7,249 nt of DNA, from assembly GCA_030603495.1 (NCBI GenBank), contig JAUVXR010000055.1, positions 1 to 7,249 on the forward strand. The letters are read 5' to 3'. Within the stretch, counting starts at the first letter, position 1. Every line of letters begins with the position of its first letter. Made by a program: the position numbers and the translations under genes. Shown piece after piece: positions 1-7,249 of the stretch. Origin of the DNA: a bacterium. GTDB lineage: Bacteria > Armatimonadota > Zipacnadia > Zipacnadales > Zipacnadaceae. The notes beneath the pieces are model-generated. The model saw nothing but the letters and a program-made list of their open reading frames with translations. It was not told where the DNA came from and ran no database searches.

Positions 1-141
1 GATCGAGGAAGGGAGCTTTAGCGCCGGCCGTAGTCTGCGCAGGGCTACGCCCTGCTCCGCCTCCGGCCGCTCCACCACTGTCCCCCAGGTTACACCTTAG
101 CTAACTGTCCATCCGTGTCCAAAAGGCGCTGAGGTCAGACA
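1..141 (+). repeat. Left arm of perfect 141-bp terminal inverted repeat
   Basis: Bases 1-141 are the exact reverse complement of 7109-7249, and pairing stops at base 142 (c, facing c at 7108). Read outward from unique DNA, the repeat starts TGTCTGACC and soon contains TTTTGGACACGG. A TG terminus of this kind resembles ends of IS3/IS481-type insertion sequences, but I cannot name the element. No coding frame runs through the whole arm. A likely explanation is the end of a repeated mobile element whose body lies outside the window. A k=141 assembly boundary would also give this exact length. Confidence 0.97.
39..55. repeat. Perfect 7-bp stem hairpin inside the terminal repeat
   Basis: GCAGGGC at 39-45 and GCCCTGC at 49-55 pair perfectly around a 3-nt loop (TAC). 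The hairpin is flanked by two copies of the self-complementary CGGCCG (25-30 and 64-69), so a larger nested fold is possible. There is no T-run after it, so it is not a standard intrinsic terminator. An attenuating or protective structure near an IS end is an inference. Confidence 0.6.
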
Positions 142-581: not shown

Positions 582-686
582 CTGCCCTAACACCCGACAG
601 GCGCGGCGCTCCGAGACTACCTGCCGGCCCAGCGCTTTCCTAACCTGGGGCACTGCTGCCCGGCGCCGGGCCGGGCTTAGTAGTTT
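582..686 (-). pseudogene. IS3-family transposase OrfB, N-terminal remnant
   Basis: Overlapping the orfA stop in another frame, this segment encodes the conserved opening of IS3-type OrfB: LLSPARRRAAV, then VSERRACRVLGQ, a helix-turn-helix hallmark of the IS407/IS2-like branch. Similarity ends at GQ (582-587). Family members continue with a RSTQRY-like segment and about 230 residues of DDE integrase, none of which is present. The frame runs on without recognisable transposase sequence to a stop at 420. The element therefore has no catalytic domain and cannot move by itself. An internal deletion joining the start of orfB to near the element's end is the simplest explanation. Confidence 0.75.
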
Positions 687-955
687 CCCGCAGCCGCCTC
701 CTTCAAAATAGCATTGTCCAGCGCCTGCTCGGCCAATAGCTTCTTCAACTGGCTGTTCTCTTTCTCCAGCTGCTTCAGCCGCTTGGCCTGGTCTAACCGC
801 ATTCCCCCATACTCGGCCCGCCACCGGTAATAAGTCTGATCCTTTACCCCGATCTTTTTGCAAGCCTGGGGCACCGTAGCTCCCCGGGCCAGCTCCACTT
901 CCGCCTGCCGCAACTTGTTGATGATCTGCTCCGGGCTGTGCCTTTTCCGACTCAT
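677..955 (-). CDS. IS3-family transposase OrfA (helix-turn-helix subunit)
   Basis: The 92-residue product begins MSRKRHSPEQIINKLRQAEV and has the standard OrfA layout. A winged helix-turn-helix at about 5-45 (ending VKDQTYYRWRAEYGGM) is followed by a leucine-zipper-like coiled coil at about 50-80 (AKRLKQLEKENSQLKKLLAE). It ends ILKEAAAGNY, also typical. In this family OrfA binds the terminal repeats, and OrfAB made by frameshifting is the active transposase. The start at 955 is chosen because AAAGGAGG (971-964) sits 8 nt upstream. A longer reading from 988 lacks such a site. The length is normal, so orfA is intact, but its orfB partner is only a fragment. Without it OrfA may still bind the ends or inhibit a related element. 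Confidence 0.88.
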   Translation of the reverse strand: MSRKRHSPEQIINKLRQAEVELARGATVPQACKKIGVKDQTYYRWRAEYGGMRLDQAKRLKQLEKENSQLKKLLAEQALDNAILKEAAAGNY

Positions 956-963
956 CTTCTTGC

Positions 964-971
964 CCTCCTTT
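964..971 (-). promoter_or_regulatory. Ribosome binding site of orfA
   Basis: AAAGGAGG on the minus strand, 8 nt before the ATG at 955. It decides the start between 955 and the upstream in-frame ATG at 988. Confidence 0.7.
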
Positions 972-1013
972 GAGTCCAGATTCCTCAAATACTAACACTG
1001 CACCTAGACTCGT

Positions 1014-1511
1014 TTGCGGGAGCAAGGTCAACTGCAGAAGCAATATCAGAAGCTACAAGACCGGATTGACGCGATATATGTTGACAAGCTTGACCGAAAT
1101 ATCTCTGGTGCCTACTTCGAGGAGAAGAGCGTTGAGTGGCGGCACGAGCAAGCGGACATACGCCGTAAGATCGAAGTCCATGAGCAGGCGAATCAGAGCT
1201 ACATCGAAGAGGGCATTCAACTACTCGAACTGGCTGACAAGTCCTACGACCTATACACCGCCCAACCCCCAGAAGAGCAGCGTAGACTGCTTAATTGCGT
1301 GGTTTCACATGCTACCTGGGGTAACGGCTCTTTGTCCCCGGTCTACCGGCCTCCGTTTGACCTCATCGCCCACTCGAACCATGAATATGCCTGTAAACAC
1401 AAGGGTTCTGACGATTTTGAAGTCCGAAAAGAAATCTGGCTCCCCCTACGGGACGATTATCGGAACTTTTTCGGAAGCGATGAGTGCCGGGAGCTTGCAC
1501 TGGCGATATAG
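1014..1511 (+). pseudogene. Large serine recombinase, C-terminal fragment
   Basis: The 165 residues match the C-terminal end of large serine recombinases, in which the coiled-coil insertion follows the zinc ribbon. QLQKQYQKLQDRIDAIYVDK at 7-26 and the charged helices to about residue 85 are the coiled coil. QPPEEQRRLLN at 84-94, PPFDLIAHSN at 113-122 and WLPLRDDYRNFFGS at 142-155 are typical tail segments. The resolvase catalytic domain with its N-terminal serine, the recombinase domain and the zinc ribbon are all absent. The full protein would be about 500-550 residues. The frame closes upstream at a TAG (1005-1007), close to the IS3 remnant, and TTG 1014 is only a nominal start. The gene has lost its 5' part, probably with the IS insertion and deletion, and cannot encode an active recombinase. 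Confidence 0.8.
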
Positions 1512-1612: not shown

Positions 1613-1960
1613 TTGGGAGGTCGCCACGTCCACGCTGGCTCCCCGAGTACCCTCGAAATCCGAACTTTTCGGCATCTAGTTAACATAATACTGTACCTAA
1701 AGCCCGATTTTGCCAAGAATGGCCGTCCCGAGCGGTATGGTGACAGGTATGCCCTTTCGATAGGAGCTCCGCTCCCCACCCCAATACCTCCAAGAGTTCG
1801 GAAAGGGACCCCTCAGGAAATGGCGCAGCGATTCCAGCGGATGCTCGATTTTGGGCTAGCCAATAACAGGGCAGAACTGGCCCGCATGCTTGGCTATTCG
1901 AGGGCGTGGGTGACGAAGGTTCTGGGGAGCACTAGAGCGGTGATTTCTTGGGTTATCTGA
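1613..1960 (+). CDS. ParB-like helix-turn-helix protein of mobile-element type
   Basis: The C-terminal part encodes RKGTPQEMAQRFQRMLDFG (63-81), then NRAELARMLGYSRAWVTKVL (85-104), a clear helix-turn-helix of the ParB/KorB-like kind. Similar short proteins often lie beside large serine recombinases, and two recombinase tails precede it here. The N-terminal 50 residues are not recognisable. The nominal TTG at 1613 has no good ribosome binding site, and the frame follows directly on the stop of the second recombinase tail at 1601-1603. The protein also ends soon after the recognition helix, where relatives usually continue. It may therefore be truncated at both ends. Binding of element DNA is inferred from the motif, and its true start is uncertain. 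Confidence 0.5.
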   Translation: MGGRHVHAGSPSTLEIRTFRHLVNIILYLKPDFAKNGRPERYGDRYALSIGAPLPTPIPPRVRKGTPQEMAQRFQRMLDFGLANNRAELARMLGYSRAWVTKVLGSTRAVISWVI

Positions 1961-2085: not shown

Positions 2086-3816
2086 TTACTGCTGCGCTTC
2101 CTCAAGATAGCCAAGGTCGCCCAACTGTAGGAACCGTCTGCGTAGCTCCGAATCTTCGTCGGCAGGCAGCCTGCCGGTCTCGTCCAGCAGCCGGGGGCGC
2201 ACGAGAATGACCAGCTCCGTGGTGCTGGCGCGCTGGGATTTGCTGCGAAACAAGGAGCCGATGATGGGCAGGCTACCCAGTATGGGGATGCGCCGGTAGG
2301 TCTTTTCCTGTTGCTTCTGCAGGAGGCCACCGATGACGATGGTCTCGCCGTCTCTGGTGCGTAGGGTTGTAGATGCTGACCGGGAGCTGAGGCGGGGCAC
2401 TCCGCTCTCCGGGTCCAGCTCCACGATATTGGAGACCTCCACGTTTACACGGGTAGTGATCTCCTGATTGCCGCCGGTCCAGGGACGTACGCTGAGCCTT
2501 ACCCCCACCGGCACCACTTCGATCCGCTCCTGCTCGTATCCTGACTGCGAATACTGCACCTTTATGTAACGTTCCGAGCCGACGAAAATGGACGCCTCCT
2601 TGCCATTGACCGCCGCTATGGAGGGGTGGGAGCGAACTTCCGCTCGGCCCTGGGTTATCAACTCTTGCAGCCATGCTTGTAGCTGGGCGGTGGGCGCTAC
2701 CGCGGTGGCCAGAGCATCGAAATCTCCGTGCTCGAAATCAATTCCTCCGGTGCGGCTGTCGGTGCCTGCACCGTAGTTCTCACTGTCGTAGCGCCAGCGG
2801 AACTGGTAGTCCAGATCAGCCGAGTCAGTCAACTCGATGACCGCGCACTCCACCATGATCATCGGCGGGCAAATGTCAACTGCCTGCAGGTCCCGCTGAA
2901 TCTTTGCCAGCATCTGGGAGGGCGCGGTTACCACCACCGCGTTCTGCTCAGGATTGTCGTGCACATACTTAAACAGGAAAGTGGGCAGCAGCGAGCGGGC
3001 GTCGCTGGCCTTCAGATAGCGCATGGGGAAGGAGGCCGTGCTACTGCGGAGGTAGGTGGGCAAGTCGGCGGGCACCCCCTCGCTGAGCATGTAGACGTCG
3101 CCGACCGAGGAAAGCGCCAGTCCGTAACCAGCAGCAATCCCGCGCAGCACTGCCAGCGGGTCTCGATCCTGAACGTTAACGCTGACCGTGTGCATTACGG
3201 CATCATCCACCGCCACACTGATCTCGCCCTGGCGCGCGATCTGGCCGACCACCTTGTGGATGTCCGCCTTGACCGCGTGCACGCTGATCAGACCATCGGT
3301 GACGGTGACTTGGATCTCACCCTCCTCGACTTCCTCGGCTTCGCCATTCCCCGTGATTCGCTCCACCGTGCGGCTGCCGTAGACCGTCACCAGATAGGTC
3401 TGTCGGTCCTCGCTGAGCTCCGCCTTCACTCGCGAGCGTTCAGTCATGGTTACGGCCATCTCCACGCCCTTCCCGTCAACTGCGTCCTGCGGCACATACA
3501 GGCTGATAGTGCTGACCGGATCCTCCGCAACATTGTAAAGGGTCTTCTCCAGGTTCAAACGAGCATCGGGAAAACGAAAGATAGCCTCGGTTACTGTTTG
3601 TGTGCGCCGCCACCCACGGGAAGTATCCCGGTCCAAGGTCAAGATGCCATCGGCCTTCACCTGAATCTGAACACCGTTACTCATTACGGTGATTTTGACT
3701 TCGTTAATGTAGCAATATGCGTCTCCCTGGGCATGGGCCCAGGCCACAAACCCCAAGCCTAGACCCAAAGATAGCGCTCCTAGAATAGCTGACTTCGCCA
3801 GCAGTGTGCATTTCAT
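2086..3816 (-). CDS. Secretin C: PilQ/GspD-type outer-membrane channel protein
   Basis: This 576-residue protein has a complete secretin architecture. The signal peptide covers 1-29 (cleavage after AHA). An AMIN-like beta domain spans about 33-147, then an STN/N0 domain about 177-245 (LISVHAVKADIHKVVGQIAR). An N1-like ring domain lies at about 262-314 (YLKASDARSLLP, then QNAVVVTAPS) and the secretin beta-barrel core at about 318-541. Core motifs are VIELTD (326-331), ASIFVGSERYI (408-418), RDGETIVIGGL (488-498) and RIPILGSLPIIGSLF (509-523), the hallmark near the gate and outer-membrane lip. Secretins form multimeric gated channels for type IV pili or type II secretion. The layout is closer to PilQ than to GspD, since only one N1-like repeat is present. 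The start overlaps the stop of gene B (ATGA) and has AGGGAGGT 6 nt upstream. The substrate or pilus served is not shown. Confidence 0.93.
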   Translation of the reverse strand: MKCTLLAKSAILGALSLGLGLGFVAWAHAQGDAYCYINEVKITVMSNGVQIQVKADGILTLDRDTSRGWRRTQTVTEAIFRFPDARLNLEKTLYNVAEDPVSTISLYVPQDAVDGKGVEMAVTMTERSRVKAELSEDRQTYLVTVYGSRTVERITGNGEAEEVEEGEIQVTVTDGLISVHAVKADIHKVVGQIARQGEISVAVDDAVMHTVSVNVQDRDPLAVLRGIAAGYGLALSSVGDVYMLSEGVPADLPTYLRSSTASFPMRYLKASDARSLLPTFLFKYVHDNPEQNAVVVTAPSQMLAKIQRDLQAVDICPPMIMVECAVIELTDSADLDYQFRWRYDSENYGAGTDSRTGGIDFEHGDFDALATAVAPTAQLQAWLQELITQGRAEVRSHPSIAAVNGKEASIFVGSERYIKVQYSQSGYEQERIEVVPVGVRLSVRPWTGGNQEITTRVNVEVSNIVELDPESGVPRLSSRSASTTLRTRDGETIVIGGLLQKQQEKTYRRIPILGSLPIIGSLFRSKSQRASTTELVILVRPRLLDETGRLPADEDSELRRRFLQLGDLGYLEEAQQ

Positions 3817-5495
3817 GGTACAACCTCCCTTGCATTGTCCTCGTATTTCAGCGGCGCCAGGCTCGCCCGCGCCTGCAGCAGTACACAGACATCTTGCTCC
3901 TCTTCGACGTCGCTGCGGCCCGTCGGGACCACCCCTGTCTTACGCCGATCCTTCGTCGCCTGGCTCAGACGGAGGCCACCTATGATCACCGTATCGCCGG
4001 ACCGCAACCGCACCGTGCCCTCGGCTGAGCGGCGAAGCACTAACGGCCCGAGGTCGTTGGTTTCCCCCAGGAAGCTACTGTTGACTCTGACAGATGCGGT
4101 AATCCATTCTCCCCCCGTGCATGGCTCGATTTCCAACGCGGCGCCAGCCTCCACCGAGGCAAGCCCACTCTGCTGCACCCAATAGATCTTCTCGCCCACG
4201 AACAGCCGGGTCCGCTGGCCATTCTTCACCTGCACGACCGGCAGCGCCTCCATGTGCAGCTGGCGCCGCGTCGCGAGGAGGCGCAGGGTGCTCACAAGCT
4301 CGTGAGCCCGCCGCTCGGCTACCTCTATGCGAACCTGTCCAATACTGTCGGCCTGCCACACAGTCGTGCCGCCACTTGCCCGGCCTGTAATTTCCTGCAG
4401 ACGCTCAGTCACGTCCCGGCCGGAGACCACCCACGCCCGCAGGCGACAGTGGTAAGCCGGTTGGTCAATCACCCGCAGGTCTTGCTCGATCCGGTCAAGT
4501 AGTGGGGATGGACCGTTCATGACCAGGGCGTTACCCTCCTCGTTAGACCGGACATAAGAGAGCAGCACGTCAGGCAGCAAGAGCACCGCCTCTACCGCTG
4601 ACAGGTACTGGAGCGGCACCGAGCGCGTCTCCGCGGCCCAGAAGGGAACGGCCGTCGCCACCTGGCTGAGGCTGACGAAGTAAGCACCGCCTTCGCGATG
4701 GAGGGACAGGCCGTAGCCCACCATCAGGGTCTGCAGGAAACGCTCCAGCGGCACACTGTCCAGGTGAGCCGTCACCTGTAGATCCACCTTGTCATCCAGA
4801 TACACCTGGACTTGCGCCAGCCGCGATACGCGCTCCAACAGCAGGTGCATGTCCGCGTTGATCGCATGTATGCTTAGGTTGTCGGCCTCGCCAGTCACCT
4901 CCAATTCAGCGGCAGCCGGCTCCACCACGGGGCGCTCCGGGGGTGGCTCCTTAGGGCGATCGCTCAGCACGGTGATAAGCAGCTCGTTTTGCTTCCTGGT
5001 GGTCTGAAGCATGACCTGTGGCCCATCGTACTCTTGCTCGTAGCTGAGATCTTGAGGCCAGCCCCCCGTGTCAATGACCGTCAGGTATCCGGGCCGGTAC
5101 AGAACCAAGGTACAGATAAGCATGTTGTCCTGCCCCCACGGCACTAAGGAAAACTCCAGATGGCTCACCGGATACTTCGCCACCTGCACCGCCGGCGCCG
5201 CACCGCTGCGAACGTTGGGCAGCATAAAGCTAATACGCCGGTCAGGGCCAGCCTCAGGCTCATCGCTTACCCCAGAGAGAAGCCCCCAAAGCGTCCGGCC
5301 ATAGGCCCAGTAGGTGCTGGCATTGACCTGCAGGACGCCGTCGACGGTAAGGCGCAGGCGCACTGCGTTAGCGAGCTCCTCCACCTCAACCTTCTCAAGC
5401 TCGACAAAGTCCTCCCGCTGACCGAAGACCACAGTCGGGGCGAGTAGGACCAAGGCAACTAGCATGAGTAGTGTCAACTGTCTCGCCGGCATCAT
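3813..5495 (-). CDS. Secretin B: divergent secretin-like protein lacking the lip motif
   Basis: This 560-residue paralogue lies between the two canonical secretins. It has a signal peptide at 1-25, an unrecognised beta-rich domain (about 28-178, in the place of the AMIN-like domain of C) and a proline-rich linker (about 180-195). An STN domain follows at about 206-275 (NLSIHAINADMHLLLERVSR), then an N1-like domain at about 291-345 and a weakened secretin core at about 348-545. TRLFVGEKIYWV (428-439) and SGDTVIIGGL (499-508) match the core, and VCVLLQARASLAP keeps the last strand. Between them, the IP-x-IG-x-LF segment of A and C is replaced by the shorter GVVPTGRS, in frame. The VEF/IELT motif is also absent. 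The length and gene coupling argue against a pseudogene. A modifying subunit that mixes with A or C is an inference. The ATG at 5492 has better spacing from GAGGAG than the one at 5495. Confidence 0.85.
   Translation of the reverse strand: MMPARQLTLLMLVALVLLAPTVVFGQREDFVELEKVEVEELANAVRLRLTVDGVLQVNASTYWAYGRTLWGLLSGVSDEPEAGPDRRISFMLPNVRSGAAPAVQVAKYPVSHLEFSLVPWGQDNMLICTLVLYRPGYLTVIDTGGWPQDLSYEQEYDGPQVMLQTTRKQNELLITVLSDRPKEPPPERPVVEPAAAELEVTGEADNLSIHAINADMHLLLERVSRLAQVQVYLDDKVDLQVTAHLDSVPLERFLQTLMVGYGLSLHREGGAYFVSLSQVATAVPFWAAETRSVPLQYLSAVEAVLLLPDVLLSYVRSNEEGNALVMNGPSPLLDRIEQDLRVIDQPAYHCRLRAWVVSGRDVTERLQEITGRASGGTTVWQADSIGQVRIEVAERRAHELVSTLRLLATRRQLHMEALPVVQVKNGQRTRLFVGEKIYWVQQSGLASVEAGAALEIEPCTGGEWITASVRVNSSFLGETNDLGPLVLRRSAEGTVRLRSGDTVIIGGLRLSQATKDRRKTGVVPTGRSDVEEEQDVCVLLQARASLAPLKYEDNAREVVP
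3823..3830 (-). promoter_or_regulatory. Ribosome binding site of secretin C, inside the end of gene B
   Basis: AGGGAGGT on the minus strand, 6 nt before ATG 3816. It lies in the last codons of gene B, so ribosomes ending B at the overlapping TGA could restart on C. Confidence 0.7.
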
Positions 5496-6931
5496 TGCTC
5501 CTCTATCCCAAAACGCTCTCGGATCTGCGTCTCTTCCTCAGCTGGCAGATGCCCAGTCGGGCTTAGTGATCGAGCGGTTATGAATATGGCCAGATCTACC
5601 GTGGTTTTCTCGGTCTTCTTCGAGCGGAATAAGTTGCCGATTATCGGAATCTCACTCAATATCGGAATGGCCCGGCGCACCAACCTGCTCTCAGTCTGGC
5701 GCAGGCCTCCAGTCACAATCGTCTGACCGTCACGGACTCGCACCGTGGTACGAGCCGTCCGCGTGGTCTTGGTGGGAAGCCCGGTGACGGCATCCGGAGC
5801 GCTGAGGGTGCTGATCTCCTGGTTAATGTCCAGAATAATCTCGCCAGCTCCACCGGTGAGAGGAGTTACTTCGAGTTTGACGCCGGCAGAGATGGAATTG
5901 CCTGAGGAGCCCACTCGTGTCGTCAGGTACTGCTCCTGGCCGATGAAAATGGTGGCCTGCTGCCCGCTGACGGTCGCGATGCGCGGGTTGGCTCGCACGC
6001 GAGCTTGGCGCTTCTCGACCAGAGCTTGTAGCTGGGAGAAGAATATGGTAGGCAGATCCACTATCGCATTGAATGTCAGTTGGCCCGTCAGTGAGTCGGT
6101 GACCACGCCCAAGTTGGCATTGCTGTATCCTAACATAGCCGCGAAGGTGTCCGTATCCATATCCGTGAATTCGACTACATTGACGTCCAGCATAATCTGG
6201 GCAGCGGGCACATCGAACTGCTCCACGTCCTCCCGAAACTTATCGAGCACCGCCTGAGGAGCAGAGAGCACCACGGCGTTCTGGTCCGTGTTCACCTTGA
6301 TGTTACCCTGCAGAAAGATGGGGAAAAGCTGCTTGGCCTGGGCCGGCGAAACGTACTTAGTGGTGACGGATGCAATATCCGAAAGCAGATAGGACGAAGG
6401 AGTACGCGGCATGCCTTCGGAGACGATATGCACGCCCTCCACTTCCGCCCACGAGAAGCCGTAGGCGTCAACAATGACTTGGAGAACCTCCCGCTCCGGC
6501 TTGTCCACGATGTTTATAGTCAGCGCACGCTTGACGGTGTCATCCACGATCAGCGGTAAGTGGGCCTCAGCGGCGAAGGCCGTGAGCAATTCATGGGCAT
6601 CCACGTTAATGGCATGCAACGTCCACCCCCGGGCGGAAGGCTCGATCTCGAGCACTTTTTCATCCTTCTCTTCCTCATCCTCTTCGTTCTTCTCGTCATC
6701 TTTCCCCTCGGTTTCCTCTTCACTGCTGCCTGATGACTTGGCAGTCTGCCCTTCATCAGCTGCGGTCTCAGTGGCCGAACTCTCGGCGGAGGGCGACTCC
6801 GCCGCTGGTGCAGCGGACGTCGCTTTCTCCTGAGTGGCTTCGGGGGAAGAAGGCCCAGCTTGTTCAGCCATGGCTGCAGTTGCTATAAACAGTACTATCA
6901 CTAAAGTCCAGCTAATAGTGCGCATCTTCAT
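5492..6931 (-). CDS. Secretin A: secretin with acidic N-terminal linker
   Basis: This 479-residue protein has a signal peptide at 1-22 (AMA before the cut). A low-complexity linker follows at about 23-95: first Ala/Ser/Glu-rich, then almost only Glu, Asp and Lys (68-92). An STN/N0 domain is at about 102-172 (GWTLHAINVDAHELL), an N1-like domain at about 188-243 (YVSPAQAKQLFP, DQNAVVLSAP) and the secretin core at about 245-455. Core motifs are VVEFTD (252-257), ATIFIGQEQYL (326-336), RDGQTIVTGGL (400-410) and AIPILSEIPIIGNLF (421-435). The tail TGHLPAEEETQIRERF resembles that of C (TGRLPADEDSELRRRF), marking A and C as close paralogues. A lacks any domain like the AMIN domain of C. Its ATG overlaps the stop of the preceding gene (ATGA), and its last codons hold the ribosome binding site of B. 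The start at 6931 has only a weak GAGAG upstream, so A may depend on coupling. Confidence 0.93.
   Translation of the reverse strand: MKMRTISWTLVIVLFIATAAMAEQAGPSSPEATQEKATSAAPAAESPSAESSATETAADEGQTAKSSGSSEEETEGKDDEKNEEDEEEKDEKVLEIEPSARGWTLHAINVDAHELLTAFAAEAHLPLIVDDTVKRALTINIVDKPEREVLQVIVDAYGFSWAEVEGVHIVSEGMPRTPSSYLLSDIASVTTKYVSPAQAKQLFPIFLQGNIKVNTDQNAVVLSAPQAVLDKFREDVEQFDVPAAQIMLDVNVVEFTDMDTDTFAAMLGYSNANLGVVTDSLTGQLTFNAIVDLPTIFFSQLQALVEKRQARVRANPRIATVSGQQATIFIGQEQYLTTRVGSSGNSISAGVKLEVTPLTGGAGEIILDINQEISTLSAPDAVTGLPTKTTRTARTTVRVRDGQTIVTGGLRQTESRLVRRAIPILSEIPIIGNLFRSKKTEKTTVDLAIFITARSLSPTGHLPAEEETQIRERFGIEEQ
5498..5503 (-). promoter_or_regulatory. Ribosome binding site of secretin B
   Basis: GAGGAG on the minus strand lies 2 nt before ATG 5495 and 5 nt before the adjacent ATG 5492. 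The spacing favours the second ATG as the real start of B. Confidence 0.55.
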
Positions 6932-7149
6932 TGCTCGCTCTCTGTGGAGAAAGTGTAGAGGTTCTTAAACTCCAGGCACGCTGGATAGTTGGCGCTCACT
7001 AGATAAGTATAGTCCGCAGCGGGCAACTTGTCCATCCACTCGTATACGCTTTCACCTGGTCGAAGGTTTACCACCAGAAGGTAATGTGGGTAGAGAGAGG
7101 AACAGTACTGTCTGACCTCAGCGCCTTTTGGACACGGATGGACAGTTAG
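6928..7149 (-). pseudogene. 3' end of an unrecognised operon gene, cut at the terminal repeat
   Basis: On the minus strand a frame is open from 7149 to TGA 6928-6930 and overlaps the start of secretin A by ATGA, the same junction as between the secretins. In unique DNA it encodes about 60 residues, including YPHYLLVVNLRPGESVYEWM and, later, DYTYLVSANYPACLEFKNLY, with many aromatic residues. I do not recognise a family. A TAG at 7150-7152, inside the 141-bp repeat, closes the frame, and no good start codon lies between. The native gene therefore ended its resemblance at the repeat edge (7108/7109) and looks truncated there. From its position it should be the gene before the secretins in a longer operon, plausibly another part of the same machine. 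That role is an inference. Confidence 0.6.
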
Positions 7150-7249
7150 CTAAGGTGTAACCTGGGGGACAGTGGTGGAGCGGCCGGAGGCGGAGCAGGG
7201 CGTAGCCCTGCGCAGACTACGGCCGGCGCTAAAGCTCCCTTCCTCGATC
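7109..7249 (-). repeat. Right arm of perfect 141-bp terminal inverted repeat
   Basis: This is the exact reverse complement of 1-141, including the GCAGGGC/GCCCTGC hairpin (here 7195-7211). On the plus strand it starts TGTCTGACC at 7109 and runs to the end of the window. Its inner edge interrupts the gene upstream of secretin A. Read outward it looks like an element entering a larger repeat, not like part of the secretin operon. Confidence 0.97.

What the first reader, a model, noticed from the sequence alone, without database searches (positions are those of the whole stretch)
2086..6931. Three tandem, translationally coupled secretin paralogues
Type IV pilus and type II secretion loci normally carry one secretin gene. 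Here three full-length secretin-family genes follow each other, each joined by an ATGA overlap, and each has its own signal peptide, STN and N1-like domains. A and C share a diagnostic tail, so duplication within the operon is likely, followed by divergence of B and swapping of N-terminal domains. Coupling suggests the products are made together in matched amounts. This could mean a hetero-oligomeric outer-membrane channel or stacked rings, as opposed to three independent pores.
Basis: partly seen in the sequence, partly recalled or inferred. Interest (0 to 1): 0.75.

Follow-up and report, generated by a model that had tools for sequence, protein, structure and literature searches.

The report
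Phylum-wide three-secretin operon in Armatimonadota
Three related outer-membrane channel (secretin) genes sit back to back as a self-contained, all-or-none gene block kept in about a third of sampled Armatimonadota genomes, which suggests a channel complex built from three different secretins, where known secretin channels are rings of a single protein.

Summary
Genes A (6931-5492), B (5495-3813) and C (3816-2086), minus strand, join by ATGA overlaps and all hit Secretin (PF00263). It is not an assembly artefact: the same order and strand recurs in 41 further loci across Candidatus Zipacnadia and other Armatimonadota classes. Of 201 genomes sampled across the phylum, 66 (about 24 families) carry the trio; every genome showing only part of it breaks at a contig or scaffold edge. 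No neighbouring gene is conserved, so the trio is its own unit, not part of a pil or gsp locus. A, B and C are three old clades that group together apart from the other secretins tested. B and C carry an AMIN-like domain, A does not. Best reading: one outer-membrane assembly in which A and C insert and B is a non-inserting ring or adaptor subunit, served by the cell's general type IV filament machinery. Joint assembly is inferred, not shown. New variant of a known kind.

The parts
5492..6931 (-). Secretin A (479 aa): signal peptide, acidic Ser/Glu-rich linker, STN/N0-like, one N1 (Secretin_N), secretin domain with intact lip motif, C-terminal TGHLPAEEE tail; no AMIN domain
3813..5495 (-). Secretin-like B (560 aa): signal peptide, AMIN-like domain, STN/N0, N1, secretin domain without the lip motif and tail; fastest evolving of the three
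2086..3816 (-). Secretin C (576 aa): signal peptide, AMIN-like domain, STN/N0, N1, secretin domain with intact lip motif, TGRLPADED tail
5492..5495 (-). A/B junction, ATGA overlap; GAGGAG just upstream of the B start
3813..3816 (-). B/C junction, ATGA overlap; GGGAGG about 7 nt upstream of the C start

Best explanation
The three genes make one dedicated outer-membrane secretin assembly. A and C, which keep the complete secretin domain with its amphipathic-helix lip, insert in the outer membrane as the channel. B has kept the secretin fold but in this lineage lost the lip and tail; it most likely acts as a non-inserting subunit, either interleaved in the ring or as a separate periplasmic ring/adaptor, held with C to peptidoglycan through AMIN-like domains. 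The assembly carries no motor of its own and probably serves the general type IV filament / type II secretion platform encoded elsewhere in the genome. Shown here: three paralogues, operon, all-or-none conservation, common origin, loss of the lip in B. Inferred: physical complex, B's role, peptidoglycan anchoring, the client machine.
For: Same order and strand in all loci read with overlapping or near-abutting junctions; 55 genomes hit by both the A and C profiles, and all 11 with only one break at a contig or scaffold edge inside the trio; flanks are unrelated from family to family; a second complete triad in G017 groups with another class, so the block behaves as a unit; tree: A 100/100, C 100/95, B 92/81, together split from 15 other secretins at 100/97; lip motif in A 40/41 and C 37/41 but in B only 10 of 39 tree rows, with at least 3 changes on the A+C tree; mean pairwise identity A 0.51, C 0.46, B 0.29; AMIN fold matches for the N-termini of B and C; the lip is reported as a key determinant of membrane insertion (PMC7545093); AMIN domains of PilQ bind peptidoglycan (PMC10653833).
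Against: No direct evidence of contact between the products; conserved operons can hold proteins that never touch. B has its lip intact in some other families, so B was not always a non-inserting subunit. Solved secretin complexes, as far as I know, are rings of one protein. Lacking the trio (G001) does not go with fewer type II ATPase or platform genes, so the client machine is not identified. The C model is of modest confidence (pLDDT 64.5).
Confidence: 0.5

Rival explanations
1. Three independent homomeric channels that are merely co-expressed, each serving a different client.
For: Each protein has its own signal peptide, N0/N1 and secretin fold; the genome holds several other secretins and seven T2SSE ATPase hits.
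Against: All-or-none presence over the phylum is odd for three independent pores; B lacks the insertion motif.
Confidence: 0.2
2. A and C form the channel(s); B is an assembly factor or chaperone-like helper (pilotin-like role) that is not part of the finished channel.
For: B keeps the fold but loses the lip and evolves fastest; it always lies between A and C.
Against: B retains the whole domain train including a six-strand secretin region, more than a simple pilotin would need; lip-bearing Bs exist.
Confidence: 0.2
3. The trio is an alternative outer-membrane pore for the known pilus systems (a PilQ or GspD replacement), not a new kind of complex.
For: AMIN-N0-N1-secretin layout of C is PilQ-like; a locus with PilB-, PilT-, PilC- and prepilin-peptidase-like genes has no secretin within 20 kb.
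Against: No conserved pil/gsp neighbour at the trio; scores far below the curated PilQ and GspD cut-offs; a separate PilQ-like gene stands by aroC.
Confidence: 0.09
4. Assembly or binning artefact.
For: Window is a short contig with repeat ends.
Against: Same trio in dozens of independent assemblies.
Confidence: 0.01

Closest known systems
Type IVa pilus secretin PilQ (PDB 6w6m, 6ve2, 4av2)
   Same: AMIN (in B and C), N0/STN, one N1, secretin barrel; profile and fold matches
   Different: Three paralogues instead of one gene; no pilMNOP neighbours; below the PilQ family cut-off; B without lip
Type II secretion secretin GspD (5wq7, 6i1x)
   Same: Best sequence matches of the A and C secretin domains
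   Different: Only one N1-type domain seen, not N1-N2-N3; below the GspD cut-off; no gsp operon
Filamentous phage export secretin pIV (7ofh)
   Same: Short N-terminal part plus secretin; profile match 4.8e-26 to A
   Different: Chromosomal trio, AMIN domains in B and C, no phage genes recognised around it
Tad pilus secretin RcpA/CpaC (8odn)
   Same: Secretin domain; the same genome has one in a Tad locus
   Different: A, B and C lack the N-terminal domain PF13629 and fall outside that clade

Membership tests
Secretin superfamily (PF00263) | Secretin domain above the curated score | tested here: met
   A 128.7, B 34.8, C 137.1 bits against a cut-off of 27.5; all aligned relatives match at E <= 0.01
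Secretin superfamily (PF00263) | Lip motif IPxLGxIPxIGxLF near the C-terminus | tested here: inconclusive
   Met by A and C, not met by window B; B has it in 10 of 39 tree rows
Type IV pilus PilQ | NCBIfam TIGR02515 cut-off (284.35) | tested here: not met
   A 124.7, B 28.3, C 111.4
Type IV pilus PilQ | AMIN + N0 + N1 + secretin layout | tested here: met
   Met by B and C by fold; A has no AMIN-like region
Type IV pilus PilQ | Location in a pilMNOPQ operon | tested here: not met
   No conserved neighbours in the loci read; only stretches up to about 7 kb to either side were read
Type II secretion GspD | NCBIfam TIGR02517 cut-off (351.35) | tested here: not met
   A 138.2, B 18.7, C 145.2
Tad secretin RcpA | T2SS-T3SS_pil_N (PF13629) N-terminal domain | tested here: not met
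   Absent from A, B, C; present in the genome's Tad secretin
Type III secretion SctC | NCBIfam TIGR02516 cut-off (238.45) | tested here: not met
   A 101.1, B 12.9, C 109.1
Hetero-oligomeric secretin channel | Different secretin proteins in one ring or stack | not testable with these tools
   No multimer prediction on hand

The most novel reading that the evidence does not exclude
A, B and C co-assemble into a single hetero-oligomeric outer-membrane secretin (mixed or stacked rings), with B a naturally lip-less subunit: a type of secretin channel not known from model systems.
Probability: 0.4. Interest if true: 0.85.

Novelty: new variant of a known kind. Interest (0 to 1): 0.62.

Why it matters
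As far as I know, solved secretins are rings of one repeated protein. A three-paralogue block kept together across a phylum, with one member repeatedly stripped of its membrane-insertion element, is a natural experiment on which subunits of a secretin ring need the lip and whether mixed rings exist. It also marks an envelope system of Armatimonadota that family models would file as three ordinary PilQ/GspD-like genes and that I did not find described in the papers searched.

Tried and rejected
Client machine: T2SSE and T2SSF counts do not differ between a genome with and one without the trio in the same genus (G000 and G001 both 7 and 11), so no dedicated motor was found. Conserved neighbours: none beyond close relatives; the Tad block near the trio in one family (f6) has its own secretin. 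Possible exception G139 (A and C far apart in one scaffold): N-gaps at both breaks, so scaffolding. No Rfam match in the window. Pairwise-distance correlations between A, B and C (0.61-0.72) are what common descent alone could give, so they were not used as evidence of contact. Papers: none found on an Armatimonadota secretin cluster; the paper describing Zipacnadia holds no mention of secretins or pili.

Full report
What is there. The window is one complete contig (G000:C59) of a 2.67-Mb genome. Its close relatives belong to Candidatus Zipacnadia, phylum Armatimonadota. Genes A, B and C lie on the minus strand in that order, overlapping by ATGA twice. Pfam gives Secretin to all three, strongly to A and C, weakly and incompletely to B. 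A and C are 37% identical over 385 residues, A and B 28%, B and C 26%. The contig ends are a perfect 141-bp inverted repeat that also occurs at other contig ends of the genome, so it is a dispersed repeat where the assembly stopped.

Is it more than one odd contig? Yes. Loci from Zipacnadales and from other families and classes of the phylum show A-B-C in the same order and strand. Junctions are mostly 4- or 8-base overlaps or near-abutting. In 201 genomes of the phylum the A profile at E <= 1e-120 hits 60 and the C profile at E <= 1e-128 hits 61, of which 55 are shared. All 11 discordant genomes were opened: the locus runs into a contig end or scaffold gap inside the trio. So 66 genomes, in about 24 families, carry it, and no sound case of A, B or C alone was found. 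Some relatives with good completeness lack A and C altogether, including one of the same genus (G001), so it can be lost, apparently as a unit.

Surroundings. Flanking genes were clustered over 35 loci: nothing is conserved beyond close relatives. Neighbours tested are sugar dehydrogenases, glycoside hydrolases, histidine kinases and the like. The trio is therefore a stand-alone block. Elsewhere the same genome has a Tad locus with its own secretin, a PilQ-like gene beside aroC, and a locus with PilB-, PilT-, PilC- and prepilin-peptidase-like genes and pseudopilins but no secretin within 20 kb (gene names other than the ATPase, platform and secretin hits are by eye).

Origin. A tree of 69 secretin regions puts all A in one clade (100/100), all C in one (100/95), all B in one (92/81), and the three together apart from 13 other Armatimonadota secretins and E. 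coli GspD and HofQ (100/97). This fits an old tandem duplication followed by co-inheritance. Branching among the three is unresolved. G017 and G022 carry a second triad that groups with a member of another class: transfer or old duplication of the whole block.

Anatomy. All have N0/STN-like and one N1 domain plus secretin. B and C start with a domain that matches AMIN folds: C to AmiC 4bin Z 10.7, rmsd 3.2, 104 aligned, and to PilQ B2 4aqz Z 10.5, rmsd 3.0, 102 aligned; B to 4bin Z 9.4, rmsd 3.1, 105 aligned, and 4aqz Z 8.7, rmsd 2.9, 101 aligned. A has an acidic low-complexity stretch instead. The lip motif is in A 40/41 and C 37/41; the exceptions are small variants and one truncated contig. 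It is absent from B in every Zipacnadales locus read but present in B of several other families; at least three changes are needed on the A+C tree. Published work takes the lip as a key determinant of membrane insertion (PMC7545093). B's mean pairwise identity is 0.29 against 0.51 for A and 0.46 for C. The AlphaFold model of B (pLDDT 73) keeps the secretin strands, with a low-confidence loop where the lip would be.

How it probably works. Fixed order, coupled junctions, all-or-none presence and lack of fixed neighbours argue that the three products act together. B's loss of the insertion element while A and C keep theirs argues for division of labour within one assembly. I therefore favour one outer-membrane complex with A and C inserted and B a non-inserting partner, anchored to peptidoglycan by AMIN domains and served by the general type IV filament machinery. 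Contact between the three, the ring arrangement and the client are inferred. Earlier work reassigned T2SS to Armatimonadetes (PMC6668835), which fits a shared platform but does not show it.

Limits. The genomes are drafts, mostly metagenome-assembled; other phyla were not searched; no multimer modelling was possible; signal peptides were judged by eye; literature was limited to the open library.

Noticed in passing
window 1-141 and 7109-7249: Perfect 141-bp inverted repeat at both contig ends, a dispersed repeat also at the ends of C20, C58 and C7 and in C2, C29 and C37; the length suggests an assembler k-mer boundary.
   Followed up: yes
window 677-988 (-): IS3-type transposase helix-turn-helix ORF.
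   Followed up: no
window 1014-1511 and 1613-1960 (+): Likely remnants of a large serine recombinase; the 1613-1960 HTH ORF has about 7 places in this genome, 4 of them within about 2 kb of a secretin-domain gene (C59, C51:25031, C7:120263, C7:146666). This looks more than chance but is unexplained and was not seen beside trios of other genomes.
   Followed up: partly
L141:6134-10595 (G000:C28): A Tad-like CpaF ATPase with two T2SSF platform genes but no secretin in the 17 kb read; a similar ATPase is present in G001, which lacks the trio.
   Followed up: partly
L070:8493-10375 (G000:C7): A secretin-domain ORF (401 aa) that runs on from what looks by eye like a TolB-type beta-propeller ORF.
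   Followed up: no
L055 and L056 (G017), L060 (G022): Genomes with two triads; the second triad groups with that of another class.
   Followed up: partly
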